Shown here piece after piece: positions 14,594 through 39,164 of a stretch of DNA of 64,000 nucleotides (positions are counted from its first letter, which is position 1; each line of letters starts with the position of its first letter). Source of the stretch: Ianthella basta (Eukaryota > Porifera > Demospongiae > Verongiida > Ianthellidae); NCBI GenBank assembly GCA_964019415.1, contig OZ025870.1:6375415-6439414 (forward strand), read 5' to 3'. Both the position numbers and the translations under genes were made by a program. A model generated the notes under the pieces. It saw only the letters and a program-made list of their open reading frames with translations, was not told the DNA's origin and ran no database searches.

Positions 14594-14596
14594 GTT

Positions 14597-15523: not shown

Positions 15524-15534
15524 TACACACACAC

Positions 15535-15619
<85 letters not shown>

Positions 15620-15638
15620 CACACACACACACATACAC
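15524..15638. repeat. (CA)n microsatellite
   Basis: About 115 bp of CA repeats with rare CG/TA interruptions. Cysteine/valine or histidine/threonine frames here are artefacts. Confidence 0.95.
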
Positions 15639-16955
15639 ATAGTGAACAATTGTGGACTCCAGCAAGTGCTTAGCTGTGTATTGCTGGTGGCTCTAATATG
15701 TATGAGTATGTATTTGCCCATGCATGTACCAAGGATTCCTGTATGACTGTTTAACACATTGCAACCATATACAAATGAACCCACAACAATTGCAAATCAC
15801 AGGTATATACATAAACTCAACAGTACTCATGAAATACAGACTAACATGTGTTACATTCCTCTAAGCATTTGTCCAGCACTCAAGAAAATTCCCTAGCCTA
15901 ACATTCAGCTAGTAACACAACAAGAAATGTCAAGCGGATGTGGCAATGTCATATCTTATTATATACAACTACATCACCTATAGCCATACGTGTACAATGA
16001 TGGGGTTGGGGACAACAACTAAGTGAAACAACATGCGTTAGGTTGATCAGCAGTCGAAGGAATGGTGAACAAAGGATCAGAATTGTGACCAGTACCTATA
16101 CTGTGAGGAAAGGTTGCCCATAATAATATATTATTATGTACATTATACTAACTGTTAAAGTTAATGATGAGATCCTAACTTTGTCTTGATCTTCAAACGA
16201 TTGTGCTAGTATAGTTTGCACTACTAGTAGCAGCCTTCAACTGTTGCTGCAAACAAGCAAAGTTTTAGTAACGATTATGCTCACCTCTGAATTATGTGTA
16301 ACTAAACTATAATATAATTACAGTATAATTGCTTCCCTGCTATTCAGCTTACCATGTCAACTGAAACGAGTGTAAGATAAATCATAATTCATCATTGTAC
16401 AATAATCAAGAGATTCATCTTGCTTCACGCAGCAACTTCATCGTGGCTAATAGCTATCTAATCAGTATTTCTACTATGAAATTGCATTATATACTCTGAG
16501 TGTCACAAATGCATGCATTTCTAGTATATACAAGTGATTGAACAGACTGGGAAGATTCATGCACACATCATGCAACGAAGTTGCCAAAGAAGAGTGTTTG
16601 TATTTACAGAAAATAATTATCATAGATTGCATGAAAGTTGTCAACATTGGGTTATACAAAGATAGCTCATAAAACCATTATAATCAAACAATACATATAG
16701 TAACATACTTTAATGCAACATATAATGTGTGCGTGGCAGTGAACATGATGGGTTAATTTTAATGGTAATTTTTAGTGTACAAAAATTATCAAATTGTCAT
16801 GTAATACACAATATAGTATAATAATATGACTGTTATAAAAATGCTTACAATCATATAGTACTTGTACGTACGTATAACAGAAAGTTATTAGCTATACTGA
16901 AAAGATTTGATTTTAGAAAAGTAAGATGCAATCAAGGTACAGTCACTGTTCAGTA
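15639..16955. other. No gene seen; 3' flank of the COR-CARD gene
   Basis: AT-rich sequence. The part nearest 16956 is the likely 3' UTR and terminator region of the minus-strand gene. No clear AATAAA was singled out. Confidence 0.35.
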
Positions 16956-19813: not shown

Positions 19814-21080
19814 CTGGAGAGATCAGAAGCAGATGATTTAGTGATTCGACTAATAGTGATTATGCAAAGTTTAGGTGTAATATTACAATATATCATCTAT
19901 TTTTAGTAAGGCAAAGCTTTAAGAAACAATGTCATTTAGAATTATAAATTGGCCAAGCTAGCTGAACATCAGGGGCGAGTAAATGTTGAATGAATATATA
20001 GCACGTGGGTCACATGCAGTTATTTTAATATAGAAGAATGCAAATGACTGCTTTCATTTTTGCTGCTGTATGACAGCACATTTTCCATGAGGAAAGTTGG
20101 AAATCCAGCATTGGTGTTCTAGCGACTTGCAAAAGACACTTTGGTGATTAGACCACTGTGTACCATCTGTATCTTGCTTGTTCAGCTTCATTACATTCTG
20201 TCCTCCTGTTGGGCAATTCTCATGATACATGATACATAGTTTCTGCCTACCAAGGAGGAAACGTAGTAGTGGTAAGAATCGTAGCAATGGTAGGTCACTC
20301 TCTAAGAGAGATCTCTCACTAAAAAGCTCATTCCTTGGATCATGATGAATCAATTGAAGGGATAGTGACAGATGCCAGAAGCTACAGTAAAGTTTATTAT
20401 TTGGGAAGCTTAAGAGATGTCTTGACTGGTTAAACATCTCACTTATAAAATAAATTATATTACTGCTAAGTTTACAACTATATATTTTAGCGTTGTCAGC
20501 TACTTTCTATTTTATCATCACCCTTGTGTGAGCATGTTTGAGTTTGTAATGTGATGTATACTTAGCGTCCTCTTCACCACACTCCTCTATTATGGTGTCT
20601 TCAGATCCCACGAACAGTCTTGCCCTGACTCATCATCTGCCTCTTCCAGTCCAATGGAGATTGTATACATAACTGATCAACTCTACAAGGACCCTACAAG
20701 ATTGTTCTCTCTCCCATCAACACTGTTGGAAACTCCAGGTACTAAGTATGTCGGTCCTTAATGCTTACAACTCCTCTATTCTATTGACAGGTAGCCTATG
20801 AAGGTCTTTCCATCACTGATTGCAATCATATATGTAATTAAACCTCCAACTCCAGGGGTAGTGAATAGGTCTTACTCACGACATTGCACTGACCCCGTTA
20901 CTGTGGCTAGGGCTTGGGCCTGAGATTGCAGCAAGGCTTCCTGGTAGGTCCTTATCCCGTATCTACTTCAAAAGAATCTCTGGGTCAGTAGCTAATCACT
21001 GATCAGTCATCTCAATGCCTTGTCTTTGGCAGTCAAATAGCTCTTGCTTTTTCCTTAGGCCCCACTTCATATATAGTATA
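19814..21080. other. Upstream of COR-CARD gene: no confident exon
   Basis: Expected to contain intron sequence of the gene above. A plus-strand segment at about 20645-20740 bounded by TTCCAG and GGTAC is open in one phase, but I could not connect it to anything. Confidence 0.3.
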
Positions 21081-21475
21081 TTAGCAGGGCGCCCGCCTTC
21101 GGCGGGCTTCTGCTATGGCGAGTCGCACAACAGCAAGTCGCCCCCAGCCAGTTTTGACGTATGTGAGCTGATAGCAACGGAAGGCAGCTGCTATAACAAC
21201 GGCCGAGTTTAAAGTCGATCGTTGAACGACAGCAAATCAAACCGTCCGACAACCGGAAGTCAAGGAAGCAATAATTAATAAAATGGCCGTCAGCCGCGAA
21301 CGAAAAACTGGAAATAGAAGGATCTCTTCAAGAACTGCAAGACGGGCAATTTCAACTCATGGAGGACACTCACGGAGCCCCACTTTATAATCCCTGAGAG
21401 TTTGGTGGCGTTCTGTGCAGTAGTTTTTGCCCGAATCGCGAACGAACAAACAAACAAACAAATGAACTGAATTAT
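21081..21475 (+). repeat. Dispersed element starting with a GC hairpin and ending in (AAAC)n
   Basis: Begins with the perfect hairpin GCCCGCC-TTC-GGCGGGC (21091-21107) and ends in GAACGAACAAACAAACAAAC, like a non-LTR/SINE tail. The same hairpin start (GCCCGCCTTCGGC), preceded by a similar TATATAGC-type flank, occurs at 33921, inside a segment shown by comparison to be an insertion. No coding region was recognised. Confidence 0.45.
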
Positions 21476-21705
21476 ATATAGCGTATATGGATACTTTCAG
21501 CGTGTGAGATTAACTTGTATAATTATGTAGCTCAATATCATCAATCATTATTACCTCAATATTAAATACAAGTAGCTCAATGTATAAACAGAATTAACAT
21601 GTTCTTAAGCTATAGTGCTACAGATTCTTTTAATGAACAAACCATTCACACACAAGGAGATTTTGCATGACATTTAACTAGCTATCAGACCTTCACTATT
21701 ACCAG

Positions 21706-21740
21706 CTTGAAAAAGGACACTGCGGTGTCTCGAAACTTCC
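21706..21740 (+). ncRNA. Hammerhead-ribozyme-like motif remnant (Penelope-type)
   Basis: CTTGAAAAAG followed by stem GGACAC/GTGTC with loop TGCG and then TCGAAAC resembles the CUGANGA-stem II-GAAAC core of hammerheads carried by Penelope-like elements. The CUGAUGA box is mutated, so activity is unlikely. Confidence 0.3.
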
Positions 21741-24340
21741 TTGGCTGTTCATTGCTATGTATGTAATACTTCTTGTTGCTATAATTTCAAATTTATCACA
21801 CCATTGGTCACATACGGTGGATGATATTACCATTGCTAGGCTTCTTAATGCAGAAATTGCAAACTGAATGAATGTCAAACACTAGCTATGAAGGTAAATC
21901 AATGGAAATTATGGTAAAACCCTTCAATTTGCTTGCCTCTACACTGGCTAATTGCAAACCACCGCCCCTTCTTAATTAGCTACCACCACAATTCTCCCAA
22001 TAGCTATAGCATTAGTTGATGAGCACACAAATTATGAATTAATAAGATTCTAGGAGTAGACTTTCAAGTTACAGGATATGCATTAACTTTATCCTTGACC
22101 AATCAAATATTACAAGTTTAAAAAACTTGTGGGGTATGTACCTGCACCCCCAAAAAACTTAAAATGGTTGCTAACAGTTTCACCTTGTATGCTGTGAATG
22201 TTCCATAGATCAGATAGAAGTTGTGGGTGTAGTGTTGCTTATGGCCTGGGACTAAGGCCTGTTAAGATTCAATAGTCTGTTGGCGTATAGTCATATGCAC
22301 ACCTCTCTCCAAGCCTGCTATAGTAGTCATCGAGTGAAAGTACCCAGTATAACAATCTTTCATATGCTTGCTGACTGCTTTACTGATTGAAATACTTAAC
22401 ATTCTGAACAAGGATACATATATGTTCATGTTACACTTTGTTCACACTAGCCAGAATTTCAAAAAATTTCTCAGACATTTTGGCAGCAATCATCGATCGG
22501 CTACCTGCCATGATCACATTCCAAATTCACACAATATTGACAGACTTTGAAGTCAAGTACATTTGTGCTGTTCAATACCTTGCTATGTATAACTATGGCA
22601 ACTTCCTAGAAATCTTAATATAATTAACGTAATGCACATTTTCGTTGTCCAGGATATACTCCTTCAATTCTGGATGGAACGTCATGAAACTTGGTAGGAT
22701 TACAAAGAGGCGCAGTGTGAGTAACCTAGTTGAGCCGAAATTTGGTCTAATGTTGTTCCGTCTGGGTTCTTGCCACTTTTGCAGTCGCTGCCATATCTAA
22801 GAGATAAGGAAAACATCATGTTTTGTTGTTCACAAACTCCTCCTTCAAAATTCTACCAATTCTCACCAAGCTTGGAAGAGTATGTCACAGCAATACAGGG
22901 GTGACCTAAGGTGGTTTGCGCCTTCACCGTTGATCTCCTTTAGATGAAATGGATTAACATAAGTAAATTTTTCGCACACAAAATTTTATGGAGTAAGTCT
23001 ACGAAATGGTCCCAATCCAATGGACTTTTTGATTGGTTCAACGCTCAAATTACCAACTGCAGACTGGGAACCCACTGAAGGACGGGCATTCAGCTAGTAT
23101 ACATAATGTAGGAAGTGGCCATGCATGGTAATGGGCAGCATATGGCCTACTGCTTGAATTCCATATACATAGCAAGAAATTGAACAGCATAAATGTACGT
23201 ACTTGACCTTGAAATCTACCATAATACATGTGTGAATTTCCAAAGGTGGTAGCTACATCAAAAGATAGGCATTGATTATGGGTGTGCCATGCGAAGCAGC
23301 GCTATAGCACTATCTTTGCATACAACGCAACACACTCATGATCAAAAGAGCATGCTTTCTTATGCAAAGTGAGCCAAAAATTACCGTTCACATGCCGGAG
23401 TTTGCATTGGAGCTGCAGTAGTGTGCAATCAAGCAGCTAGCAAACAAGACTAGTTAGGGACAGCTAGGGTGACGCTTCTTGCAACATTAAGCTAGCTAAT
23501 TACAAGGACAGAGTCATTATAGCTAGCTAGTGTCTCTGGTGACTCCTAATATCCTCTTCTTGCATTTGGCGCAGTACAGCGTGTTCCTGCTTTGTATTCA
23601 CTTGTTGGTTGATCTAACACAATGACTGAATAGATACGATTGCAGCTCTTTGACAGAAAAATGCTCAAGTAGGCAGCTCCTGCAGACACTTTCACATCAC
23701 TGTGAGTATGAAACCATGATTAGAGGAAAGCTGTCAACGAAGTTCTTCAGCACATGAAAGCTTGGACAGGCAATCTACTGCTAGTCCATAGCAATGAGTG
23801 AGACGGTCTGGAAGAGCAAAATTTAAATAGTGTGTAGCTATAGGTATGGTAGGCAAATGGTGCTGGTGAATAGAGAGACTGGAATGAGGTACAAGCTTGC
23901 TTTGAATACAGGAGCAAGCTCCAGTTGAGAGTCTTATCCTTTCGCTGTGCAAAGTGAAATGGTGTCATGTCCAACTTCCTACAAATCTTCGACGGCAAAC
24001 GACAGCAAGGAGAAAGATATGGTTGGAAAGGTCAGGTACAATATACGAATAGTATCCCATTTCCCTTTCCATCCCCAATCCTCCTTGCTACTGTATAAGA
24101 GATACATAAAATTAGTATACTCACATAAAAATGATTCGTGCATTCATGCAAATTGCCAGCACAATTTTTTAAGTATTTGCAGAAGATAATGCAATTATAT
24201 GGTAGTTTGATAGACTACAAGTATGTACTAAGCATATGTCCATGTACTGCTATTGTCCTGAACAGCTATTGTACATGGGAACCATGGCAACTAAATCTTT
24301 TTATGCATTAAAGGCAAAAAGAGTGCAATACATCTGGTAT
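21741..24340. other. Repeat relics, no gene
   Basis: The stretch 22650-23100 (GAACGTCATGAAACTTGGTAG ... GGACGGGCATTCAGCTAGT) has the look of an old transposable-element body. Around 22115 a short AAAACTTGTGGGG motif recurs in similar form near 36910 (AAAACCTCGTGGGG). A minus-strand frame at 23950 with an ankyrin-like TPFHFAQRKDK is too short and degenerate to call. Confidence 0.35.
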
Positions 24341-24344
24341 CAAC

Positions 24345-25015
24345 AACTACACTACACTAGTGGAACAGTTCCGTAACTGGTTATATTTGAGAACCGTTCT
24401 ATGGATCGGTTCTCATTGGTTCAGCCCCCGTTTACACTAGTTACAGCAAAACAGGTTCGAGTAGTGCAAATGAAGTGCGGAAAACGAACATAGTAGTCTC
24501 CAACAGATGATTTCCATTGCATAGGCGCCAAATTTCTAAACAAAAGGCGCAGTTATCAGTATTTGCCGCCTGAGTGGCCGTCTCCCATATGCATTTCAAT
24601 TGAAAGAAGCACCTCTGCGTCACTCCAAACACCAGCCATTGCTCTTACCTGCTTAGAGCACAATACAGGTCACTACTGAAGAATTGGAACTACTGAAGCC
24701 TCTCTGTGCTCTCCATCTACCTGGTTACGCATGAGACAAGTGGCGTGAACAGCCGCTTACGAATGTGTATGTATATGTGTAATGTGTAATGCGTATGTAA
24801 TGTGTATGCGAATGTGTAATATGTATGAATTTTACTTGCCGTATTATTTTCACTAGCGAATGGTATGGTTTTGGACCAGTTTGGACCACCAACCCGAGGT
24901 GGTACCGTTCCACCTGGAACGGTTTGCTTTAAACCATTCCACGCCCATTTACACTACGGTAAGAACTGTTCTGGAACCGTTCCAGAACCATTCCACTCCA
25001 TAGTGTAAACAGGCT
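24345..25015. mobile_element. Inverted-repeat DNA element (hAT/MITE-like), about 0.67 kb
   Basis: The left end (CACTAGTGGAACAGTTCC, internal GTTTACACTAG) and right end (reverse complement CACTATGGAGTGGAATGG, internal TACCGTAGTGTAAAT) are related inverted repeats rich in GGAACGGTTC-type motifs. The interior has no transposase. No clean target duplication was identified. Confidence 0.4.
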
Positions 25016-25038
25016 GACAGACACCAATAATTACTTAC

Positions 25039-25056
25039 TTTGTGCCTCCAACACCC
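25039..25056 (-). CDS. Candidate 18-nt microexon (m0)
   Basis: Minus strand: acceptor TTTCTGCAG, 18 nt, donor GTAAGTAATT. Length divisible by three and open in the phase shared by the other microexons. Its acceptor side resembles that of the 30-nt copy at 36424. Unlinked to a transcript. Confidence 0.3.
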
Positions 25057-26186
25057 CTGCAGAAATAAATAAGGAAGAGACGCATAATCCACATACTGTC
25101 AACTGCTTATTAATGTATAGCACAAACAATGCATACATGACACATCGATAATTAAATTTTGTGACAATATTATATCTACACCACCATTTCATTGCCATTG
25201 TGGTCATGAAGGGACTTGGCTGGCATTCAACTCCATTACAAAAATATGATAAGCAGCATGCACCTATTATTATAGTGAGTGTAAATCACAGAACACCAAA
25301 CATTCACTATACACCACACCCCATGGGCTTGTTGTCTTGGCTCGTAGACAGGCACTCAACAATGTCCCTAATTATTCATGCTCCCCGTAACCTCCCTGAC
25401 CAGGGAAAGTCCAGCAAGAGACTAGGCTAGTTACTAAACTGGTGCCAAGATACAAGGTAAACTGTGTGTGTTCAACCAATAGGATTCAAGAAATGGAGAA
25501 GAACTTGGACAATTAACATCATCTATATGATTTAAGTATGGCACAATTCTACAGATCAGCCAACGCAAGCCACAATAATCCACTTTTGAATGAAGGTAGA
25601 TTGAGGGTCTCTTAGGGAACTATGGCACTTGGGGTCAAGTCTCATTACCTGATATAGCATTAGGCTTTGCCTCTTGCTGTATCAAGAAATGAACCTCACC
25701 CCCAGCACCACAACAGGTGGCCAACCAACTGACCAACTTTACGCAATAGTCATTCTGAGAAGTAAGTTACGTATACAGAAAAAGAACTGTACTACAGTAT
25801 TCAGCAATAGCATGCCTACCCTGCCATACAGTGGGTGAATGGAAGATGTTCAGATGTCATTCTGCATGTGTACAATCATACACAGCTCATTCAATGGTTC
25901 TATAGGGAGTCTAACTGGGAAGGTTTGTAACAATGCAGTACTAACACATCACTTGAGTCACAAAGCCGAACAGTAAGAACATACACCTCATCTGATTGCA
26001 ATCTTGTTTTGCATATTGAAAGCCAAAAAGGAAGCAACTGAAGACATGTTGGTTACAATCAAGTGCTTACATTCTGGTTCCTCAAGCAATGATGCCCTGT
26101 GCCTAGTGGTAGCTGTATATAGAATGTAGAGAGATACTTGCTCACACTTGCTGCAAAACCTGCAACTCACAAAAGTCAGTACTCAC

Positions 26187-26222
26187 ATAAGGATGCTGAA
26201 GGTGACTGCACATGAGGGGTAT
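26187..26222 (-). CDS. Candidate 36-nt microexon (m1)
   Basis: Minus strand: acceptor CTTCACGCAG, donor GTGAGTACTG. Reads TPHVQSPSASL in the shared phase (two leading bases, one trailing). Closest copy to the COR-CARD gene among the 36/39-nt family, lying outside the tandem duplication. Confidence 0.45.
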
Positions 26223-27119
26223 CTGCGTGAAGAAGACAGATTGGGGAAGAGTGGCACAAAACGGCCACATTGCCAGAGGCAAACATGGGAAACAGTACCT
26301 ATATTGTGTAACTTATGTCAACATTTTCTATTCTCAAACAAGCCACAGACACAGTGGTCATGCCCACATCAGGTAATACAGTGGAGTGGCAAACAAATGA
26401 ACTGGTATAAGTTTGCATGACACACAGTAAAGAAGACGATCACATCATCAAGTCATTATGTTATGGGAGCTATGTAACTAACAATAACAGAAACATGCAT
26501 GCCAAAAAGCTGTCTGGATATACTGACACAATTATGTACAATAACACATTTTGCGTGTTGTTGTATATATGATGAAGCCATACATCAAAGGCAAAAACTG
26601 CGGTATATACATATTGTATAACCACCAGTTTGCTATACTTTAACTTCCCCAAGAGCACTGGTCTCATATTGTTAGCCAATCAGCTTCATGTGAAATGTTT
26701 ATTTTGTTCTAAAGTTGTTGCTCATTTTTTACAAATTTCTTGCCATGCAGCTGCTGTTCACATAGCATGTGACTCTTTCTTGCAGCACATTCATGTGTCA
26801 CCTTGTGGATGTGCAATGTCATGGCAGTGTATGCTCATGTCATCCCATGATTACACATGACTTGCTTGTGCATGCTAGCTAGATGCATTAAGCAAAGAAT
26901 AGAATATATAAAATTGGTTGATGTGAATGTATCTAGCATAAAAAATATACTTTTCACACGTATGTAAGTGTCCAACTCTTTTCTCAATACATTGGGCTTT
27001 GACTGCTGCACAACACTGCTACATGCAAGCTAAAACGTACTGCACTTACAGTGGCTGCCTTGTCTCCATGTATTACAGCGAATTCAGGTAACTTGGTACG
27101 GCCTGGTGTGCATAACTAC

Positions 27120-27320
27120 CTTGAAATCAAGGGCTGTGTTACTACGCTGAAACACCGTTCGCGGAACCTCATTTCTGGCAAAAGTTACTACTAAGTTCCT
27201 CTGGTCACGGCGAAAACAAGAACAGCGCTTTTTCCACAGAAGACTCCTTCTGACTTCTTGCGCATTCCTTCTGATCTGGTCCGCTACACGCTTGGCAATG
27301 AAACGTTCAATGTTCAACAT
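27120..27320 (-). CDS. Candidate first coding exon, unknown protein
   Basis: Minus-strand ATG at 27320 with an upstream in-frame stop, then 67 codons rich in Arg/Lys (MLNIERFIAKRVADQIRRN..., RRSLLWKKRCSCFRRDQ) ending DFK before a possible donor GTAGTT. The local base composition is coding-like compared with its surroundings. The exon ends in phase 0, which does not match the phase-1 microexons or the COR-CARD exon, so linkage to that gene is doubtful. No family recognised. Confidence 0.3.
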
Positions 27321-27566
27321 AAAGCAGGCTTCTTGAAGTTACTTGGTCCAGCACCGTCACTAATCACTTACTTTATGCTATATCCTCCTGAGTCCATAAG
27401 CATCTGCCGTTGGTACCTAGGAAACGGCGCTCTAGTTCGATTGATTCGACGATTCAAACCATTCTCGTTCCAAAAACAACAAGCCATATCATGGTATGCT
27501 TGGGCGTTAATCTAATTTAGCACACTCGGGCGCTTTGCGCCCTTGTGGTCAAATTAGATAACACCC

Positions 27567-28017
27567 TAGTCTAGCCGCTAGCCCCTAATTCATCATTGCG
27601 CGCGGGGGGCGGTAGAAAGTAGGGTCTAGCAGAATGTGTAAATTCCACACCTCGCAATCATCACGCTACTGGGCGTTAACTTATCAAGAACGTCGATTAC
27701 GAACAACGTCAACGAATAATACTCAGTAACGAGAGATAACGATGGCCTGAGGGTGGGAAATGTCGTCGCATAGGCTTTCCTTGAGGATCGCGGGCTCAAC
27801 CTTGGCCTGCAGCAAATGTATTATTGTCTCGGATACAACTGTCGCTTTGTCTCTACTTTGGTACAATAAGCTCCAGTGTCTTCATAATTGCTGCTGTGAT
27901 CTGAGGCAACAGCGATCTCATGGTCAGCACGAGGTGTGGAACTTACACATTCTACTAGACCCTACTTTCTTCCTCCCCCGCGCCCAAATGACAAAGTAAG
28001 GGCTAGCGGCTAGACTA
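27567..28017. mobile_element. MITE with about 85-bp terminal inverted repeats
   Basis: Left arm TAGTCTAGCCGCTAGCCC... (27567-27650) and right arm (27935-28017) pair with few mismatches through GAAAGTAGGGTCTAG and AATGTGTAA. Both ends read TA-GTCTAGCC, consistent with a TA target duplication (Tc1/mariner-like). No transposase inside. Confidence 0.7.
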
Positions 28018-28189
28018 ATAACGCCCTCACTGCCATAATATAATTATAACTTGTGTCACAATGCTACGTAGCTATATGTATCGCAGTAGCTACAACTGTA
28101 CACAACCTTGTGTGAAGGTTGCTTGAGATAGCTACACTTGCTGCAGAGACATTAACTCAGTGAAGACACCATTGGCAATCAGTACTCAC

Positions 28190-28228
28190 AGTTGTAAGAT
28201 GCTGAAGATGAATGTGCTTTGGGAGGAA
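28190..28228 (-). CDS. Candidate 39-nt microexon (m2)
   Basis: Acceptor TCCTCTACAG, donor GTGAGTACTG. Reads PPKAHSSSASYN in the shared phase. Paralogue of 32349-32387. Confidence 0.5.
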
Positions 28229-29361
28229 CTGTAGAGGAGATATATAGATCAAGGAATAGTGGCACAAAGGACCTCTCCACCAAAAGCAATCACGGAGAAC
28301 AGTACCTATTTCAATCTATTTTATGGATTAAGGTTGCGAAGTCCACTTACAAGCACTAAAATGTTTGTGTATAAAATTTAGCAGCAACTAAATTTATTGT
28401 TCTCCAAAGTTCAGGTTGTGTGAGTACGAATTTAGCAAAGCATTTTGTGCTTAGAACAATATTCTGATGGTGTAAACTAATTGTGGGTAACTACACTATT
28501 AACAATTATTACATTACTTACTAAATTCACTGTGATTCACAGATGCAATGAAGCCTTCAGGGATAGCTATGTAGCTAGAGAAGATTCAGTAAGCCTTGGC
28601 TATGTAAACCAAGGTTAGTGGAGCATTAACATTGCATGTATAGTATGTGAACGTGATGCGGAAATTAAGAGTCAAGGTACACAATGCATGATATAAGTTG
28701 AATGCACTGTTAATCACCACTTTCATCACACAAGAGTGTGGGTGAACAACTGTTACACCAAATTTGAACAGATCAATGGCTGCTGATTACGGCTTAAAAT
28801 GTTCACCTAAGAGATCTAGTACAATTCATTATATGTTTCAGAACTAGTCATCCTATGGTCAATTGCAGAGAGACCAGTGCCTACCACTATTCAAACACAT
28901 AGGCTGTAGCTATATTATGTCGATATGGTGAAACCACAAATCAGCATCAACTGATATTGACTACGATGGCAAAGGGACCAAAAATGGGTCAACTAAAGAT
29001 GCATGAATGATCCACAGTTAACTAATTAATGGAGTGTGATGCACCACACTCTTCTAGCTAGGATGAGCTGAAGAGCCTGTCAAAATTAGTTTTGCAGAAT
29101 AACCTGTTTTGGGCTCAGGAGAGTCAGCAGTGATATGGTACGACAGAATTCTCCTGATTATGCAGTAGTGACTCATGCTATTGTGTTGAATAGAAATGGG
29201 TTGTTATGGAGTGTTCACGCAGCAAAGAAGAATGAACTGGTGAGATTTTTAACCTTAAAGGTCATATTGCCAGTTCTGCCATGCTGCTATACACCAGTAG
29301 CTACTATGCGGCCTAGTGTGCAAGTGTTTGACTAGCTACCATATTATAGTTTCTAATATAT

Positions 29362-29461
29362 AGGCGCCCCTTAACAATAATTCCAGCGCTGAAAGGTGCT
29401 TCTTATTAGAACGACCAAAAATATGCAATGACCAAGGGGCGCTTCAATTAGAAGGGCGCCT
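29362..29461. mobile_element. Small MITE with TAGGCGCCC ends
   Basis: About 100 bp bounded by TAGGCGCCCC and GGGCGCCTA, with further inverted GCGC-containing segments inside (CAGCGCTG/GGGGCGC). Non-autonomous, superfamily not assignable. Confidence 0.4.
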
Positions 29462-29630
29462 AACACATGTACTAGAGCAGAATAGTACTTTTAAGCACCT
29501 GCGTACAGAACAGCACGCTGCTTTTGTTTCGCGGGGTACATAATTATTAGAAATTATACAGTATATATAATTATATACACTTTCTGCAAAGGCTGCAACT
29601 CGATCAGTGAAGACACCAATCAGTACTCAC

Positions 29631-29666
29631 AGTAGGATTCTAAAGATGAATGTACTTGATGAGGAA
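29631..29666 (-). CDS. Candidate 36-nt microexon (m3)
   Basis: Acceptor TCCTCTGCAG, donor GTGAGTACTG. Reads PHQVHSSLESY in the shared phase; another phase contains TAG. Paralogue of 33273-33308. Confidence 0.5.
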
Positions 29667-30076
29667 CTGCAGAGGAGATAAATTGAGGAGTATATAGTGG
29701 CACAAAGCTAAAGGGACCACACAACCCAAGGCAAATGTAAGAAACAAGTAATACAGGCGTAGCTACATAATTTATAATGCATCAGATTCTGTGTGATTGC
29801 GTATACAAACATTACATTTACACTGATTATTTCACCGTCCAATTCTGTACTAAGCAGACTTTTGCGTATAACCAGAGAAGTTTTAGCAAACCATGGTTTT
29901 ATGGTAGAGCATTTGAAGTACCATAGCACCGGCCTGAAGGTGTAGTAATTATACTTCAAGTGATATAATTGTATAATGCACGTTAACATGCAGTTGAGGG
30001 CATTACTTCACTGTAATATTCATTGACATAACTGATGGCAAGCTGGGCTACGTTTTAGCAGCTCAATGCCTACCAA

Positions 30077-30328
30077 TCATGGTCTAAAGACACTAGCATG
30101 ATCTTTCTTTTGGTCAATCGAGCACACCTGGAGACACTTGCCAATGTAGTACAACTTTTCACTCATCATGGGCTTTGTCAGGCATACAAAACGAAAAGAT
30201 GGCAACTTTTGTACTAGCACAGTGAGCAAAGATTGGTCAGCTATTGTTTGACCAGTCAGATGGGTAATAATGTTTACTCCCCTAGAAGCCAAATATGGGA
30301 GTTCCACACTTTGGGGATATAGCTTGAT
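30077..30328 (-). CDS. Candidate coding segment, unknown
   Basis: Minus strand after the acceptor TTTAATTCTGCAG the frame runs IKLYPQSVELPYLASRGVNI...KLPSFRFVCLTKP...YYIGKCLQ. It then either splices at GTGTGC or continues to a stop at 30077. It is absent from the paralogous second array. No family recognised; may be exonised transposon sequence. Confidence 0.3.
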   Translation of the reverse strand: MKLYPQSVELPYLASRGVNIITHLTGQTIADQSLLTVLVQKLPSFRFVCLTKPMMSEKLYYIGKCLQVCSIDQKKDHASVFRP

Positions 30329-30657
30329 CTGCAGAATTAAAGATCAAGCTAGTATCAAGTTGGCATGCTTAATATATGTTTCATGACTGTATCTCAAGCA
30401 GTTTTGGACCAGCTCATACAAATAGAATCTACAAACTTAGAAGAGCAGAAGAAAAGTTGGCAAAGGCAAACAACCACCTCATCTTCCTCATCAGATGTCG
30501 AAGCCACGTTGGGACGTTCAGCATTCTTTGCATGACACACCATACAAACCTAAGCTGCATGTTGTCTAGAAAAACAGACTATAATATTATAGGTGCAGTA
30601 ATGCATATGCTGGTTCCCCCATGGTGCTAACGTTATTACACGGCATGTACACGTTGT

Positions 30658-30858
30658 TTGTGTGGCTGCCACACTTCATCTGTAGAACAAGCTGCTGCTT
30701 ACTTGCAACAAGCACACTTAACACAGTCAAGGTGCAGATTAATTGACATTGTCGTAGACATTAACCACGTGGATGAGCTCTTGTTGGGCACACATTATGC
30801 ACTCTTGCATCACAAGCACAGGTGCAGGATATACAGTGTGTCATGCTACCTAGGTTAA
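30658..30858 (+). other. Conserved open segment duplicated at 32990-33180, function unknown
   Basis: The plus-strand frame CGCHTSSVEQAAAYLQQ...LIDIVVDINHVDELLLG is largely preserved in both duplicates (differences such as RC to KC and NH to NQ). No start, splice or domain support, so it may be an old transposon or exon relic rather than a gene. Confidence 0.25.
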
Positions 30859-31303
30859 GTGAGTGGACTATTTGACATTCATTTGCATTTCCTGCGGGTG
30901 AGCTCAAGGGTGAATACCATTACATTTGAACAGCTCAATGCCTGCCAATCTAAGGATGCTGGTGCCACCGAGATTCAATGTACATTGTTAGGTACCTAAA
31001 ACTAAGGCTATGGCACCAGAACACACAATACTCCAACAACACTAGCATATCTGCAGTACAATAATGTGTCCTGCTACATATGTACATACTACATACGTAG
31101 GTTAAACATCACACCTCTTACAGTAAATGGATGATATAGTCTATATTGTTCACTCATGCACATTAAGCAACAAAAGGCTGCATGTATGTCATTATGTAAC
31201 AGCGAGCATAATGCTTACCAACAACACCCTTACAATGCCATATTACATAATTATGCAATTGAAGCAACAAGGAACTAACTCGAAGGCACCAATCTGTACT
31301 CAC

Positions 31304-31339
31304 AGTAAGTTTCCGATGATGAATCACTTTTGGGGGGAT
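31304..31339 (-). CDS. Candidate 36-nt microexon (m4)
   Basis: Acceptor TCTCCTCGCAG, donor GTGAGTACAG. Reads PPKSDSSSETY in the shared phase. Paralogue of 35543-35578 (two differences). Confidence 0.5.
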
Positions 31340-31604
31340 CTGCGAGGAGACAGATTGAGGAGTAGTGACACAAAGGGATCCCCGTGCCAATGGCAAACAT
31401 GAGGCAACAGTATTCACAACCATTACAAGTTCAACTAAATATGTGATAAGCTGCTAAGTTTTGTACAGGCTAGCAAAGATGACCCTAGTCATGCAGGAGC
31501 AAAGCTGTATTCAGGTATTATGTATATTGTGTTTATTGTAGTTCAAGGCACTGGACCATATATAAGTTGAAGGCCATATAAAATGGAGTATACACAATTG
31601 GTTC

Positions 31605-31880
31605 AGCCAGAAGTACGTACAGGCCTTCAGCAGTGGACTACATTGGAGACCTATATGAGAAACTGAAGCGGGGTCCATGCATCACTATGCCAGGAATCAC
31701 CTCAAGATCATATATGATAGGAAGAAGCAGATTTATGACTGGCTGCAGTGTGAATATATCACTGTCAGAGTCAGCAGGAGATATTGTGTGGTTTCACAGC
31801 CCCATGCATGCACAGAAAGAAAGGCCCAAGCCTCAAGCTGCAACAGCCCGAGTAAGGACCTTACATATGTGGTGATCAAG
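31605..31880 (+). pseudogene. Ty3/gypsy integrase C-terminal fragment
   Basis: In broken frames the segment reads DYIGDLYEKLKR, then YARNHLKIIYDRKKQIYDW and GDIVWFHSPMHAQKE-type sequence. This is the familiar end of a gypsy integrase (helical ARxxLKxxxDRxKxxYD, then GDxVWxxxP). Frameshifts and no upstream core show it is a relic. Duplicated at 35862-36135. Confidence 0.5.
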
Positions 31881-32348
31881 AATTCGCAGATCAATGAGTG
31901 CACAGAAAACATGAAATTCAATCAACAATGAATTCTTACTTGTATATACATTTGCAGGTAGTGCCTTGAACTGCCAATGCATCAGCCTGCAATATACCCT
32001 CATTTTTAGCACCCCATTGCATTTAATTCCTACCATCAAATATAATAATTATTATTCTCTCACCTTTGTGTCTAAACTAAGTTAGTTTGCAGTTAAGAAG
32101 ACGAACACATTTACCAAGTCATTATGTTATGGGACTACATAACTGACAACAACGGAAACATGATCATGCCAAGATGCTGTCTGAAAAACTGACACAATTA
32201 CAATACTACATTTTGCTAATTGTGCCACAATGCAATGCAGCTACACAACAGTAGCTACGACTGTACACAACCTTGTGCGAAGGTTGTTTGAGATAGCTAC
32301 ACTTTGTGCAATAGCTTCTTTTCAGTGAAGACACCAATCAGTACTCAC

Positions 32349-32387
32349 AGTAGCAAGATGCTGAAGATGTATGTGCTTTGGGAGGAA
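32349..32387 (-). CDS. Candidate 39-nt microexon (m5)
   Basis: Acceptor TCCCCTACAG, donor GTGAGTACTG. Reads PPKAHTSSASCY in the shared phase. Paralogue of 28190-28228. Confidence 0.5.
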
Positions 32388-33272
32388 CTGTAGGGGAGAT
32401 AGATCAAGGAATAGTGACACAAAGAACCTCTCCACCAAAGGCAAGCACGGAGAACAGTACCTATTTCAATCTATTTATGGATTCAGGTTGCAAGCACTAA
32501 GTTGTTCATGTATACATTTAGCAGCAGCAAATAAATTTATTGTTCTCCAAACTTCAGGTGTGAGTACTAGTTAAGCAATTATCAAGCATTTTGTGCCTGG
32601 AACATTATTCTGCTGATGCAAAATACTTGTGGGTACACTATTAGCAATTTTTGCATTACTCACTAAATGCACTGTGATTCGCAAAATTGATGCAATGTAG
32701 CCTTTAGGGATATGTAGCGAGAGAAATTCAGCAAACCATGGCTATGTAAGCAAAGGTTAGTGGAGCATTAAAGTTGCATGTAGTATGTGAACGTGAAGCA
32801 GAAATTAAGAGTCAGGGTACATAATGCATGATTTAAGTAGAGTGCACTGTTTAATCACCACTTTCATTGCTCAAGAGTGTGTGTGAACAACACTAAATTC
32901 AAACATATCAATGGCTGCTGATTATGGCTTTAACATTTTCACCTAAGAGATCAAGTACAATTCATTAAGTTTCAGAGCTAGCCATCCTGTGGCTGCCACA
33001 CTTCATCTGTAGAACAAGCTGCTGCTTACTTGCAACAAACAAACGTAACAGAATTGCGATGCAAATTAATTGACACTGTCATGGACATTAACCAAGTGGA
33101 TGAGCTCTTGTTGGGCACACATTATATGCATTCATGCATCACAAGCACATGTACAGTATGTACAGTGTGTCATGCTACCTAGGTTAATAACAATGCCATA
33201 GATTACAATGTTACCACTTGCTCTTTAAGAAATACATGTTGCAACTCAGAGGGGATACCAATCAGTACTCAC

Positions 33273-33308
33273 AGTAGGATTCCACAGATGAATGACTTTT
33301 CGAGGAAA
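33273..33308 (-). CDS. Candidate 36-nt microexon (m6)
   Basis: Acceptor TCTCCTTGCAG, donor GTGAGTACTG. Reads SSKSHSSVESY in the shared phase. Paralogue of 29631-29666. Confidence 0.5.
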
Positions 33309-33825
33309 CTGCAAGGAGACAGATTGCATGAGGAGTAGTGACACAAAATTAATGATCACACTGCTAATAGCAAGCATGAGAAACAGTACCTACATTCCGC
33401 ATGCACACTATATTATATCTATTTTGGTCCACTTATGAACTAAGCTGCTATATATGTCTCATGCATGGCCAGACATAATTCAGCACTGTGCAAACTATAT
33501 ATGCACATGGCATGTGCTATAGCATTAGGTTGTACCACTTGCAAGTGATGCAATTTTATTCCTGGTTATATACTCATACACGCAAGTGAGTGGACTATTT
33601 GACATTCATTTGCATTACCTGTGGGTGAGCTCAAGGGTGAATACCTGTGCCGTTATATTTACACAGCTCAATGCCTGTCAATCATGCTCTAAGGACATTG
33701 TGCCACTGAGATTCCATGCACATTGTTATATAGGTACCTGAAACTATGGCTAGGGCACCAGAACACACAATACTCCAACAACACTATGGCATATCTGCAG
33801 TACAGTATTGTGTCATGCTATATAT

Positions 33826-35287
33826 ATATATAACAGTGCAAGTCACAAAGTACAAGGGTGAAGCCATACAATGAACAATGCAATAACAATATAATATCAC
33901 TGTAATTATATAGCTGCAAGGCCCGCCTTCGGCAAGCCCATAATTTGGCCCCGTTCCCCATCCCTTGCGACGCTCTATGCCATAGTGCAGTGTCCCTGGG
34001 CCTCTGAAAGTTTGATGGCAAACCGTTGCCGTGCGCAGGGGTTGGCTGGTAAAATTTGGCCTAATAAACTCTTTCGCCATTCCTTCCTTGGTTGTTGGCT
34101 GTTGGAGAGCACCGACGATTCAGTGCACCCTACAGCACAGTGTCGTAGTGCTGAGAACATTTGGTGGCAATTTGATCACAGCCACATGAGAAAAAGTGGG
34201 GACAAAGCTCTGGCCGACTTCTCTATAACAACATGGCTATCTCCACTGATTAAAGATGGCCGCTGTGTGGGGTTAGCGAAGAACCGTCGTTGCGCTGCAT
34301 GCTCAGAATAGGCCTGCTTTTGAAAATGATGGTCAACTTGATTAGTAGCAGCAACGGGTGAGATGATTGGGAAAGTTTGGCAGCAATCCACCGGCCGCCA
34401 TTGGAGGAGTCTGGTTTGCAAGCGCGCCCAAACTTTTCCTTCTTGTATGCTGCAATGAATGAATAGTTGAATGATGAATAGTTCATCTCCGAACCCCTCT
34501 CCTCTAGTGATGCTCTAAGGCATAGCATGGTGCCTCTGAGAGAGTTTTGTAGCAAACCGCTACCGGACGCGGGAATGGTTGGCGGACGAGTTTTCTCAAA
34601 AACTCATTGGCCTTTCCTTCCTCGGCTGTAGGTTATTAAAGTGGGCTGAAACTTGGGTGCAATCTATGGCACAGCGTCGCAGTGCTGGGCAAAGCTTGAT
34701 GGCAATTTGTTAGCGGGCGCCCGAGAATAAGGGGGACAAATGTTCTGCCCACTCTTTAAATTATGTGTCGACTCGTTCGCTTCCCCTCTCCTCAGTCGTG
34801 GGCCATTAAAGAACGAAAACATTATTGTGTAGCTTACACCACGGCTCCAATTTGTGCCGTTCGACTAGCACCAGCATTGTACTTGCATTGATACTGGTCC
34901 CTCACTGCATGCCAATCGATGCTGGTGCCCAGTCCCCCTGACCTTCAGCAACTTGCACTGGTGGTGTGTTTCCTTCCATCAACTAGCACAAACACTCTAC
35001 TTACACTTGGGGTGGTTACCCACAGCAACTTGCACCGGTGGCCTTGTTCGTAGAAGCACCGGTGCTTATACTGCATGCGCAGATTGCAACTTGCACTGTG
35101 TGTTGGTGGTGGTGGTGGTGGTGGTGGTGGTGGTGGTGGTGATGGTGGCGGTGCATATATATAAAATTATACATAATGTGTTCTGTCCAAGTGCAAGTTT
35201 CATACCTGTTGCTGCATCCTGCAGCTGCTCCAACTTGTGCTGTTCGACTAGCACTGCATGCCGATCAAAGCTGGTGCCCGGTCCCCC
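33826..35287. mobile_element. About 1.46-kb insertion in the second duplication array
   Basis: The first array runs directly from TGTCCTGCTACATATGTAC to TAGGTTAAACATCAC (31066-31115). The second has about 1.46 kb between the same sequences, so this piece was inserted after duplication. It contains the GCCCGCCTTCGGC start shared with 21091. It also holds a diverged internal direct repeat (33980-34170 against 34510-34720) and a second repeated motif (CCGTTCGACTAGCAC...GGTGCCC at about 34855 and 35235). No coding region recognised. Confidence 0.55.
35104..35151. repeat. (TGG)n trinucleotide repeat
   Basis: About 13 tandem TGG units with one GAT interruption, inside the insertion above. Confidence 0.9.
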
Positions 35288-35542
35288 TACATGTCATAGG
35301 TTAAACATCACACGTCTTACAGCAAATGAAATGCATGTTATTGTCCATATTATTGTTCACATATGCACATTAAGCAACAAAAGGCTGCAAGCACATGGGT
35401 CAATATGGATACCAAAAAAGTACTCACAAATGAAGTGTGTAATAGCAAGCATAAAGCTTACCAACGCCGCTCATACAATGCCATATTATATATGCAATTG
35501 AAGCAACAAGGAACTAACTCAGAGATACCAATCTGTACTCAC

Positions 35543-35578
35543 AGTAAGTTTCTGATGATGAATGACTTTTGGGGGGAT
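35543..35578 (-). CDS. Candidate 36-nt microexon (m7)
   Basis: Acceptor TCTCCTCACAG, donor GTGAGTACAG. Reads PPKSHSSSETY in the shared phase. Paralogue of 31304-31339. Confidence 0.5.
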
Positions 35579-35861
35579 CTGTGAGGAGACAGATTGAGGA
35601 ATAGTGACACAAAAGGGTCATCGTGCCAATGGCAAACATGAGAAACAGTAGATCACAACCGTTACAAGTTCAACTACATAATAAGCTGAACTAAGTGATA
35701 AGCTGCTAAGTCTTGTGCAGGCTAGCAAAGATGACCCTAGTCATGCAGGAGCAAAGCTGTATTCAGGTATTATGTATATTGTGTTTATTGTAGTTCAAGG
35801 CACTGGACCATATATAAGTTGAAGGCCATACAAAATGGAGTATATATTCACAATTGGTTCA

Positions 35862-36135
35862 GCCAGAGGTACATACAGGCCTTCAGCAGTGGACTACATT
35901 GGAGACCTATATGAGAAACTGAAGCGGGTCCATGCATGCATCACTATGCCAGGAATCACCTCAAGATCATATATGATAGGAAGAAGCAGATTTATGACTG
36001 GCTGCAGTGTGAATATATCACTGTCAGGTCAGCAGGAGATATTGTGTGGTTTCACAGCCCCATGCATGCACAGAAAGAAAGGCCCAAGCCTCAAGCTGCA
36101 ACAGCCCGAGTAAGGACCTTACATATGTGGTGATC
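35862..36135 (+). pseudogene. Ty3/gypsy integrase C-terminal fragment, second copy
   Basis: Same relic as 31605-31880 with small indels that shift the frame at different points, as expected for a decayed sequence duplicated with its flanks. Confidence 0.5.
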
Positions 36136-36423
36136 AAGAATTCACAGATCAATGAGTGCACAGAAAACATGAAATTCAATCAACAATGAATTCTTACTTG
36201 TATCTACATTTGCAGGTAGTGCTTTGAACTGCCAATGCATCAGCCTGCATTATACCCTCATTTATTAGCACCCCATTGCATTTAATTCCTACCAACAGAT
36301 ATAATATTCGAACACTTTTGTGTCCAAACTCATATCATCCAGCCAATTGCACTCTAGCTATAAATGCTCAATCAACATAATGCAGCACACAATTACAAAG
36401 AAAACCATCTATCTAGTACTCAC

Positions 36424-36453
36424 TTAAAGTTTGTTTATCCTTTAACATCACCC
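36424..36453 (-). CDS. Candidate 30-nt microexon (m8)
   Basis: Acceptor TTTCTGCAG, donor GTGAGTACTA. Reads VMLKDKQTL in the shared phase; the other two phases contain stops. This copy is the best evidence that the phase is real. Confidence 0.45.
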
Positions 36454-37152
36454 CTGCAGAAATGACAAGTTGAGGAAGCACTATGTATGCACATGTTAGC
36501 ATGTCACCATCTCAGTTTACTAAATTCACTGTTCACAAATGCCACCAGATGTAGATATTGCAGGCCCAGAGGAAGCACTTTATAGGTGGCCAAGCCATGT
36601 CAAACAATATAACCTAGACAGTCACATGCACAGGCCACGAAGTACCTTAGCTATATAGAACAGAATGGTCAGACCTAAATATCTGGTCAGGCCATGGCTT
36701 GGGCAGCCAGAGCAGTTCTGCCAGGTGTGTATTGTTTCAATGCACTGCTAAGGAAAACTAAGTAACTGCTCCATCCACCTTGTTTCTGAGCATTTTTTGG
36801 AAACGCTGCAGCACCATCCCTATAATATTATACCTAAAATTTTCTGGATAACACGTTATTTATATAACGTCTAGTTTCAATACTTTTAGCGAATAGCTCA
36901 ACAAGTATTAAAAACCTCGTGGGGCTGCTGCCCCAACTCAAAATACTTGCTCCCTCCGGTCACTGCTGTGCATCAATATATAGTAGCTATTGCAACTTGT
37001 GTAATTCATCAAAACACTTGTGAACACACTTCATAGGCAAGAATGAACACAGACGATTGCAGTGGACATGTTTGCACAACGGCACAGTACATTAACTTAC
37101 ATACCTTATACACAGTTTGCACATCCTCAGAGTTGCCAAAAACACAATCAAG
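36454..37152. other. No gene seen
   Basis: AT-rich spacer. Contains CTCGTGGGGCTGCTGCCCC near 36917, a small hairpin in a motif also seen near 22120, likely part of a dispersed repeat. Confidence 0.35.
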
Positions 37153-37210
37153 TACACGCACGCACGCGCACACACACACACACACACACACACGCACGCA
37201 CGCGCGCGCT
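37153..37210. repeat. CA/CG microsatellite
   Basis: CACA core bordered by CGCACGCACGCGCGC. Confidence 0.9.
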
Positions 37211-39164
37211 AAGCACACACATGCAAACAAATGTACATGCTCTCTCAAAGACATGGACGAGAGGAGAGGGACCTGGATGGAGGACACTGCACAGATACCT
37301 GCAAGTGCTTTACAGCACACCCCGGCGCAGTTATTGCAGCGGCTATAAGGTTGTGTTGTGGTGGAAGGCAGTTCGCTCGACCGCACTACGCGCACCATCT
37401 GGAGGAAATTTCGAAGGGTAGCTATAACTGTGCGAGCTTAAGCTTTAAACGCTATAGACCGTTAGCAAATGTTTGCGTACAGAATTCGTGGGGTTCACCA
37501 AGTTCTATGTCGTTCTTGTCACTTCTCTAAGACAGGGAACTAAAGTCCTTCAACGGGGCGGCCTTGATAGAAAGCGTCGTGTGAACCAAGTCGCCGAACT
37601 CCTGGGTGTAATCCCGCTGCTTCCTGTACGTCTTCAGACCAGAGGTGGTGTGGTTGCCTGTTCTACAACTTTCGAAGGCAGAAGACTCCAACGCTCCGCG
37701 CAGATCGACGTTTGAAAGCCGGTTTCAAGTCCTTCCCTCGGTTCTTCCGGCGTGAGAGGCAAACAAATGGCCGACAATATCCTTATATCTTCATTACTTC
37801 CGTCGATACATAATTATATAAATGTAAGGACAGTTATACCACCGCAGTTTACGTATTATATGAACCGACATACCACCGGAAGCGTTCCACGAAGTTTCTT
37901 ATAATTATTTAAATTTCCTATATTTTACACAATAGTAGCCTATGTGGCGTCACCTCCTCGTGGGCTGCCTTTTCGCTGGTTTATAACGCGAGTGAATAAC
38001 GCTACTTTCAGTCTGTAGCACAACCAACCGCCACCATACATACATAGTCAATTCAATGTAAGCTTTTATATAGGCACACTACGTATATGACCATACGGGT
38101 GTCGCTGTCTGGTAAGTTAACACATTTGTATTACGTACGTAGCTAGCTGTCCCAAAGTAGATGTTGCGATCTGTAAGCATACAACCTCTATTGATAGCGT
38201 TTTTATGGAAAAAAAAAAAACAGAGAGTCAGTAGCTAAGCTGAAAGTACTATGAGTTGATAGAACTGTTTCTGATTATGGTGCCGGAGCAAGGCCCTACC
38301 TGTGATATCTTATCATAACTGCTAACAATTTCTACCTCAAATTTCAACGATGAAGGGCTCATCGCACTTACATTTCAACTTGGTCACCTCCTTTCCTAGA
38401 TCGGCCCTTGCGACGGTGATTCCTTAAATTTTACACGGAGTTGGTACAGGAGTACACTACAAAATTCTTCATCTGTACAACTGACGGAAGTCCGCTCTTG
38501 TCGCTATCTATACCTATGCTTTTGTCTATCTTTTGTGTGGCCGTGCACGCACTCTAGCTATCACTTCCGCTACGACGTCGTGTAACGGATGTGGTCAGGG
38601 CTAGCACGTTGTCTACGAGTCGTGCGTGGCTTTTCGTTGTACATACAATGCATGTGGGTGCATGTCTCACTGTACGCACACTTACTTTGCTGCTCAGCAT
38701 TTCCATACTTGTTGCAGGGAGGGTACTCTCAGGACCAGTAGGTCATTGATACCAATTAAGTACAGTAAGAAAAATTAATAGAAAAGAGAGCAATTAGCTA
38801 ATAGGCACTGCTGCTAACTAGATGTTCATTGCAACCAAGGAGAGGAGGAAGTTTGTGATGACTATGATGTTACCCAGACTTCGATATAATTTTCATAATA
38901 ATTATTTGTAAAACACATATAAGAGACCTGAAGTGCATGGTATATAGAGCATATGTTATTGACTGTATAAATTAGTAACATGTAGCCCATGATTATTCCA
39001 ATGGAATTCAGAAGGGTCAGTTCATATAATTATTGTATTCGTGCTTCATATATACCTTGTGCAAGGCATGAATATTCGTAGTAAGATATTTACTTACCTC
39101 CTCATGCCATGCTCACACACACACATACAAGCACAAACACAAACACATGTACATGTGCACACAT

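What the first reader, a model, noticed from the sequence alone, without database searches (positions are those of the whole stretch)
25039..36453. Array of nine symmetric microexons on the minus strand
Seen: nine segments of 18, 36, 39, 36, 36, 39, 36, 36 and 30 nt, each with an AG acceptor after a pyrimidine tract and a GTGAGTAC- or GTAAGT-type donor. All lengths are multiples of three. All nine are open in one common phase (two leading, one trailing base); in the 30-nt copy only that phase is open. The seven 36/39-nt copies encode related Ser/Pro-rich peptides (PPKSDSSSETY, SSKSHSSVESY, PPKAHSSSASY). Inference: inclusion or skipping of any of them keeps frame, so a linker of variable length or sequence could be produced. 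The phase matches the GTPase exon acceptor at 19813. I know of no described equivalent in this gene type.
Basis: partly seen in the sequence, partly recalled or inferred. Interest (0 to 1): 0.8.

Follow-up and report, generated by a model that had tools for sequence, protein, structure and literature searches.

The report
Tiny in-frame exon arrays before GTPase genes
An animal genome, probably a sponge's, carries rows of tiny exons just upstream of some immune-type GTPase genes, and any mix of those in the studied gene could be spliced in without breaking the protein, so one gene could make many versions of a linker or recognition segment; this is predicted from DNA and awaits RNA data.

Summary
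On the minus strand at 25039-36453 lie nine segments of 30, 36, 36, 39, 36, 36, 39, 36 and 18 nt with AG/GT borders, all open in phase 1-1. They lead in frame into a Roc-like GTPase exon (phase-1 acceptor at 19813) followed by a CARD exon, and all 512 subsets keep the frame. Similar arrays stand before other members of this gene family: a 32-nt acceptor-flank pattern has 51 hits genome-wide (backwards control 0), all in three GTPase clusters and in sense; of 39 hits read in full, 38 open onto an 18-36-nt symmetric phase-1 exon with a GTRAG donor. Arrays were shown for 13 of 63 GTPase loci scored, all on contigs C3 and C6; not found elsewhere with these probes. In the 21-nt class, exons vary about six-fold more than the adjacent intron. 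I read this as duplicated splice cassettes with variable payloads giving the GTPases an adjustable N-terminal linker. Splicing and alternative use are inferred: no RNA data. Closest known kind: schistosome micro-exon genes. The first exon was not found.

The parts
36424..36453 (-). microexon 1, 30 nt, phase 1-1, peptide VMLKDKQTL
   Evidence: second-best distinct candidate of a scan trained on other loci
35543..35578 (-). microexon 2, 36 nt, PPKSHSSSETY
   Evidence: not recovered
33273..33308 (-). microexon 3, 36 nt, SSKSHSSVESY
   Evidence: not recovered
32349..32387 (-). microexon 4, 39 nt, PPKAHTSSASCY
31304..31339 (-). microexon 5, 36 nt, PPKSDSSSETY (D reads H in the tandem copy of the locus)
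   Evidence: not recovered
29631..29666 (-). microexon 6, 36 nt, PHQVHSSLESY
28190..28228 (-). microexon 7, 39 nt, PPKAHSSSASYN (PPKAHSSPASYN in the tandem copy)
26187..26222 (-). microexon 8, 36 nt, TPHVQSPSASL, most diverged of the seven
   Evidence: not recovered
25039..25056 (-). microexon 9, 18 nt, VLEAQ; by eye resembles class-A exons of contig C6 (e.g. VLEEQK in L072)
   Evidence: rank 38
17778..19813 (-). GTPase exon, phase-1 acceptor, Roc-like P-loop, DTGGQ motif
17618..17696 (-). 79-nt exon, phase 0 to 1, between GTPase and CARD
16956..17302 (-). last exon: CARD (Pfam PF00619, E 6.5e-6, above its cut-off) and stop
5352..38620 (.). block holding the gene, present a second time 76.4 kb away on the same contig (pieces 98.8-99.7% identical)

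Best explanation
The nine segments are real coding microexons of a GTPase-CARD gene of death-fold innate-immunity type. They form one array of a system shared by a subset of the gene family: a small splice cassette (a conserved branch-site and pyrimidine stretch, AG, an 18-39-nt phase-1-1 payload, a strong GTRAG donor) has been duplicated many times upstream of paralogous GTPase exons. Each payload adds 5-12 whole residues plus one junction residue. Because every unit is symmetric in the same phase, units can be gained, lost, included or skipped freely, so the linker before the GTPase varies between paralogues (shown in DNA) and probably between transcripts of one gene (inferred). In this gene the linker is Ser/Pro/Tyr-rich and probably flexible; in C6 paralogues it is rich in Glu, Lys and Arg and probably helical. 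Shown: positions, phase, cassette homology, recurrence before 13 GTPase loci on C3 and C6, and exon divergence above flank divergence in the 21-nt class. Inferred: splicing, alternative use, linker role, immune role.
For: Nine of nine in one phase, with none elsewhere in the window under the same criteria. In 26 of 26 paralogue loci listed, of 30 held, an AG in the 75 bases before a conserved motif leaves the same two leading bases before the GTPase frame; by eye it is the first AG after the pyrimidine tract, and no control was run. Tandem microexon arrays directly before the GTPase exon: six exons in L032 (30, 30, 30, 30, 30, 21 nt, 154-160-bp period), two in L027, one in L024, and a 24-nt one in L019, the nearest paralogue outside the copy at 62% identity. 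Flank pattern: 51 hits genome-wide, backwards control 0, all in these clusters and in sense; 39 of 51 lie within 25 kb upstream of a same-strand GTPase exon. 38 of 39 hits read in full have symmetric open phase-1 exons with GTRAG donors. Corrected matrix scan of 30 loci, 1.5 kb upstream, strict thresholds: sense strand 10 symmetric open plus 1 off-frame alternative donor; antisense 1 open and 1 not open; GTPase body 0 sense and 2 off-frame antisense; downstream 0. Class-A exons: mean pairwise difference 0.305 against 0.049 in 58 downstream intron columns.
Against: No RNA evidence of any junction. The N-terminal exon is unknown, so the joined frame has no proven start. The 10 hits of the strict scan come from 4 of 30 loci; the other 26 show none within 1.5 kb, and at loose thresholds the contrast shrinks. 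No flank hit falls in the GTPase clusters of C1, C2, C5, C9, C10, C11 or C16, so the system is shown only for a subset. Some copies have decayed: L073 has a GTCAGT donor, and a copy at C6:8187619 lost its AG. 12 of the 51 hits lie 46-82 kb from the nearest same-strand GTPase exon found, 11 of them in one group. Exon pN and pS are alike (0.352 and 0.379), so the excess variation is not a clean dN>dS signal. Hits were chosen by upstream flank, so only the downstream intron is a fair comparison. The GTPase exon scores below Pfam's Roc cut-off; 10 of 18 members reach E 0.01.
Confidence: 0.72

Rival explanations
1. All nine microexons are always included. The array is simply a long repetitive linker that grew by tandem exon duplication, with no isoform diversity.
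For: Strong splice sites on all nine. 0 of 540 splice-flank bases differ between the two copies of the locus, though only about two changes would be expected at the overall rate. 876-bp and 789-bp repeats of intron plus exon show ordinary tandem growth.
Against: Perfect symmetry of all units is not needed for constitutive exons, though it also follows from duplicating one phase-1-1 unit. Splice flanks more alike than payloads suggest regulated splicing (17 of 21 window exon pairs), but do not prove it.
Confidence: 0.3
2. The exons are mutually exclusive alternatives, Dscam-like: one payload chosen per transcript.
For: Related payloads in similar cassettes.
Against: The best complement of the shared flank element in 24 kb of pre-mRNA matches 18 of 30 positions, no better than 30 shuffled controls (17-20), so no simple docking site was found; ungapped matching of one element only. 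All lengths are multiples of three, so no frame enforces exclusivity.
Confidence: 0.07
3. The microexons belong to a separate upstream gene, or to a non-coding transcript, and do not join the GTPase exon.
For: 5.2 kb separates the last microexon from 19813, and ORFs of 80 aa or more in that gap were not examined for domains; the first exon is unknown; one C6 group of 11 hits lies over 57 kb from any GTPase exon found.
Against: Phase agreement with the GTPase acceptor; in L032, L027 and L024 the array sits 0.3-1.1 kb before the GTPase exon.
Confidence: 0.1
4. A dispersed repeat or chance splice-like sequences with no role.
For: The cassettes are repeats; some have decayed. The genome has dispersed repeats, one of them just upstream of the array.
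Against: All 51 flank hits and all 29 class-A exon hits lie in GTPase clusters on the sense strand, controls 0; open phase-1 frames with intact borders in 38 of 39 read; shuffles give 0.11.
Confidence: 0.05

Closest known systems
Schistosome micro-exon genes (MEGs)
   Same: Many very short exons, most of them multiples of three, separated by introns of 0.1 to almost 5 kb (passages of PMC10526429); symmetrical exons allowing alternative splicing into variants (passages of PMC4350168).
   Different: MEG products carry signal peptides and are secreted or membrane-anchored, most of the coding region is microexons, and MEGs were described as apparently restricted to platyhelminths (passages of PMC4350168).
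Tandemly duplicated alternative exons (Dscam and similar; recalled)
   Same: Arrays of related exons formed by tandem duplication.
   Different: Much shorter units, frame-neutral in any combination; no docking sequence found.
Roc/ROCO GTPases and NLR-like death-fold receptors
   Same: Roc-like P-loop, DTGGQ motif, CARD or, in a paralogue, SLFN_AlbA_2 downstream, large clustered family.
   Different: The Roc match is below cut-off; no COR, NACHT or LRR match in the parts scanned.
Variable repeat linkers such as titin PEVK exons (recalled)
   Same: Phase-equal small exons tuning a linker.
   Different: Homology was not tested; payloads here are shorter and differ by gene.

Membership tests
Schistosome-type micro-exon gene | series of very short symmetric exons | tested here: met
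   nine of nine, 18-39 nt, all multiples of three, one phase
Schistosome-type micro-exon gene | most of the coding region lies in microexons | tested here: not met
   306 nt against 2462 nt in three larger exons; first exon unknown
Schistosome-type micro-exon gene | signal peptide, secreted or membrane-anchored product | tested here: inconclusive
   first exon not found; CARD and Roc-like domains point to the cytosol
Schistosome-type micro-exon gene | alternative splicing of microexons | not testable with these tools
   no RNA data
Dscam-type mutually exclusive array | docking/selector complementarity | tested here: not met
   best complement 18/30, shuffled controls 17-20; one element, ungapped matching only
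ROCO (Roc-COR) protein | Roc domain | tested here: inconclusive
   E 2e-4, below the cut-off, for the window gene; 10 of 18 members at E 0.01
ROCO (Roc-COR) protein | COR domain | tested here: not met
   no Pfam COR match; no fold comparison, since structure prediction did not complete
NLR | NACHT domain with LRRs | tested here: not met
   no such Pfam match in the exons scanned; N-terminus not found
CARD protein | CARD domain | tested here: met
   PF00619 E 6.5e-6, 26.5 bits against a cut-off of 23.9

The most novel reading that the evidence does not exclude
An early-branching animal diversifies part of a large family of immune-type GTPase receptors through arrays of duplicated splice cassettes whose borders are held constant while their 5-12-residue payloads vary far faster than the adjacent introns. 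Each gene would then produce a combinatorial set of linkers, up to 512 here, that work as variable recognition or docking strips or as adjustable spacers. In this gene Tyr-(Phe/Tyr)-Pro-Pro motifs arise only at microexon-microexon joints, so splicing itself would count out YxxP-type docking sites.
Probability: 0.25. Interest if true: 0.9.

Novelty: new variant of a known kind. Interest (0 to 1): 0.74.

Why it matters
If the exons are spliced and used variably, an animal outside flatworms evolved micro-exon gene architecture inside immune-type signalling proteins rather than secreted antigens. It would be a DNA-encoded source of receptor diversity without adaptive immunity, with a clear prediction that one long-read RNA data set can test. 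It also warns that gene annotation, which often misses exons under 40 nt (recalled), may hide the variable part of such families.

Tried and rejected
A first exon at 37299-37398 (MVRVVRSS..., phase-1 end) is present in both copies, but it lies in a dispersed repeat scored at 38 other places (of 313 first-look candidates), and 64 of 74 hits of its peptide contain stops; not accepted. A Dscam-type docking site was sought and not found. The first matrix scan used the wrong orientation for 13 of 30 loci and is replaced. A looser search also listed a 60-nt segment in L024 and a 27-nt one in L027 with GTAGGT donors; I left them out as unlike the cassette. In one search the sixth residue of two of the 29 typed rows came out as K where the copy read in full (L048) has T; counts for that residue are not used. 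Profile search of the GTPase against solved structures gave 0 matches at E 0.1. Four literature searches aimed at sponge microexons or such arrays and three on sponge GTPase/CARD families showed no title or abstract start describing this system; that covers open-licence PMC papers and those terms only. PMC8242945 (passages) and PMC8195603 (passages) describe diverse sponge receptors and expansions of TRADD-N domains joined to Death-type domains; the passages shown do not mention this architecture.
Full report
Setting. The window lies at C3:6375415-6439414 of a 209-Mb genome in 96 contigs.

Observation. The nine minus-strand segments are exactly as described. A plain search for pyrimidine tract, [CT]AG, 15-45 nt and GTRAGTA returns exactly these nine on the minus strand of the whole window and none on the plus strand; all nine are symmetric and open in phase 1-1. 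200 shuffles of the locus average 0.11 hits and 0.03 symmetric open hits (criteria chosen after seeing the nine). Matrices trained only on other loci of the genome rank four of the nine as the four best distinct candidates in 204 kb on both strands, put the 18-nt exon 38th, and do not recover the other four at the cut-off.

Gene model. Downstream come a 2036-nt exon (17778-19813, two leading bases), a 79-nt exon (17618-17696) and a last exon (16956-17302). The joined frame reads through all nine microexons to the stop, and each of the 512 subsets of the nine also ends in that single stop. The large exon has a Roc-like P-loop (E 2e-4, below Pfam's cut-off) and the last exon a CARD (E 6.5e-6, above it). 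The first coding exon was not found: the best candidate lies in a dispersed repeat.

Local history. The block 5352-38620 occurs twice, 76.4 kb apart. Across the array the copies differ at 52 of 13773 aligned bases; splice flanks differ at 0 of 540 and microexons at 2 of 306. Both microexon changes alter the amino acid (D to H in e31, read; S to P in e28). With so few changes this says little about selection. Within the array, an 876-bp piece (93%) and a 789-bp piece (82%) are repeated, so it grew partly by duplicating exon plus intron. Judged by one 161-base query around microexon 7, related units occur only in this locus and its copy (6 matches).

Family. A search with the GTPase exon gave 97 matching pieces from 63 scored loci (of 304 in the first look), the window's and its copy included, some with stops, on 11 contigs. 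A search with a C6 member gave 67 pieces from 65 scored. In 26 of 26 loci listed (30 held), an AG leaves two leading bases before the GTPase frame, the same phase as here; several AGs often compete in the stretch and no control was run.

Microexon arrays elsewhere. L032 has six microexons (30, 30, 30, 30, 30, 21 nt) at a 154-160-bp period just before its GTPase exon, L027 two and L024 one; L019 has one of 24 nt. Their peptides are charged (EREKQEKKR, KREKQQ, RKEEEAR), unlike the Ser/Pro-rich ones here, yet the acceptor flanks match. In the corrected scan of 30 loci (matrices trained without L019, L024, L027 and L032), strict thresholds gave 10 symmetric open hits and one off-frame alternative donor on the upstream sense strand, all in these 4 loci; 26 loci gave none within 1.5 kb. 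Upstream antisense gave one open and one not open; GTPase body 0 sense and 2 off-frame antisense; downstream 0 on both strands. At loose thresholds (open / multiple of three not open / off-frame): upstream sense 11/0/6, upstream antisense 3/1/5, GTPase sense 5/0/0, GTPase antisense 1/0/11, downstream sense 0/0/25, downstream antisense 1/2/4.

Genome-wide flank. The pattern TGTCACTNTTCCTCAATCTGTYTYCTNNNCAG with up to 3 mismatches has 51 hits and 0 in the backwards control. 40 are in C6:7.79-8.41 Mb, 9 in C6:2.64-2.68 Mb and 2 at this locus and its copy; all are on the strand of the nearby GTPase genes. None is in the GTPase clusters of the other contigs. 39 of 51 lie within 25 kb upstream of a same-strand GTPase exon; 12 lie at 46-82 kb (distances worked out by hand). 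Each of the seven minus-strand GTPase exons in C6:7.78-8.40 Mb has at least one hit within 25 kb. With this locus and its copy, the three genes of C6:2.6 Mb and L019, that makes 13 of 63 loci. I read 28 of the 40 C6 hits in full: 20 of 20 and 7 of 8 have an 18-30-nt exon, multiple of three, open in phase 1-1, with GTRAGT; the exception has GTCAGT. With the nine C6:2.6-Mb hits (donors GTAAGT, or GTGAGC in three) and the two of this locus, that is 38 of 39 read; 12 were not fetched. A pattern for the 21-nt class itself found 29 hits, control 0, all inside the same C6 cluster and strand, one with a lost acceptor AG.

Variable payload. Among 12 distinct 21-nt copies (of 16 such among 28 read), mean pairwise difference per column is 0.305 in the exon and 0.049 over 58 downstream intron columns (Mann-Whitney p 4.5e-5, columns treated as independent); the upstream flank, 0.059, was chosen by the pattern. 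pN is 0.352, pS 0.379 and downstream intron 0.063. So the payload varies five to six times as much as the intron beside it, mostly in codons 1, 2, 5 and the first base of 6, while a central Glu-Glu and the exon ends are nearly constant. Equal pN and pS do not show classical positive selection; strong constraint on the cassette, or conversion of flanks, could also give the pattern. In L032 the contrast is weaker (pN 0.166, pS 0.145, intron 0.106). In the window array the 40 bases before the exon are more alike than the exon in 17 of 21 pairs; intron 21-220 bases after the donor aligns at 58-86% with gaps, without a control for unrelated sequence.

N- and C-terminal partners. Upstream of L032's array is a Ras/Rab-type exon (Pfam Ras, E 5e-13) that ends, as read directly, in a phase-1 donor. 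Similar exons stand 1.3-2.6 kb before all three GTPase exons of that subcluster, so a fusion is possible; no match was found near this gene at E 0.001. Only the window gene, its copy and L020 show a CARD like this within 1.5 kb downstream (3 of 30; L020's scores below Pfam's cut-off). L035 has SLFN_AlbA_2 above its cut-off; three other downstream ORFs tested gave nothing above a cut-off. Changing C-terminal partners would fit a defence family, by analogy.

Mechanism. Most likely a phase-neutral splice cassette has been copied repeatedly, so that the linker before the GTPase can be lengthened, shortened or exchanged during evolution and, I infer, during splicing. Tyr-(Phe/Tyr)-Pro-Pro appears at three of the eight microexon joints of the full-length reading, each formed only when two microexons are joined; that it resembles YxxP docking motifs is recalled and untested.

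Compared with the known. Schistosome MEGs share the microexon architecture (passages of PMC10526429, and PMC4350168) but not the gene type. By the tests made this is not a MEG: most of its known coding sequence is not microexons. It works like one if alternative splicing is confirmed. Confidence figures are unchanged after re-checking; the claim that the system is family-wide was narrowed to the C3 and C6 loci.

Noticed in passing
window 7484-11503 +: Long open frame with the look of a Ty3/Gypsy-like retroelement polyprotein (my reading of the translation); it falls in the stretch absent from the second copy of the block, so it probably inserted after the duplication.
   Followed up: partly
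window 37290-37900 -: A roughly 600-bp dispersed repeat, scored at 38 other places at 80-86% identity, just upstream of the array.
   Followed up: partly
C6:8.083-8.107 Mb: Eleven microexon-flank hits without a GTPase exon found within 57 kb downstream: an orphan or very distant array.
   Followed up: partly
L032:3-172 and C6:2.64-2.74 Mb: Ras/Rab-type exons before the three GTPase genes with charged microexon payloads, and a local Rab cluster: a possible Rab-linker-GTPase fusion.
   Followed up: partly
L035 (C11:4.77 Mb), 1.5 kb downstream of the GTPase exon: A GTPase paralogue followed by an SLFN_AlbA_2 domain in place of CARD.
   Followed up: partly
window 42778-43575 and 47272-48894 +: A collagen-like gene (Pfam Collagen) and a related stretch at 89% identity, with further similar stretches about 9-10 kb and 72-73 kb before the window start.
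   Followed up: no
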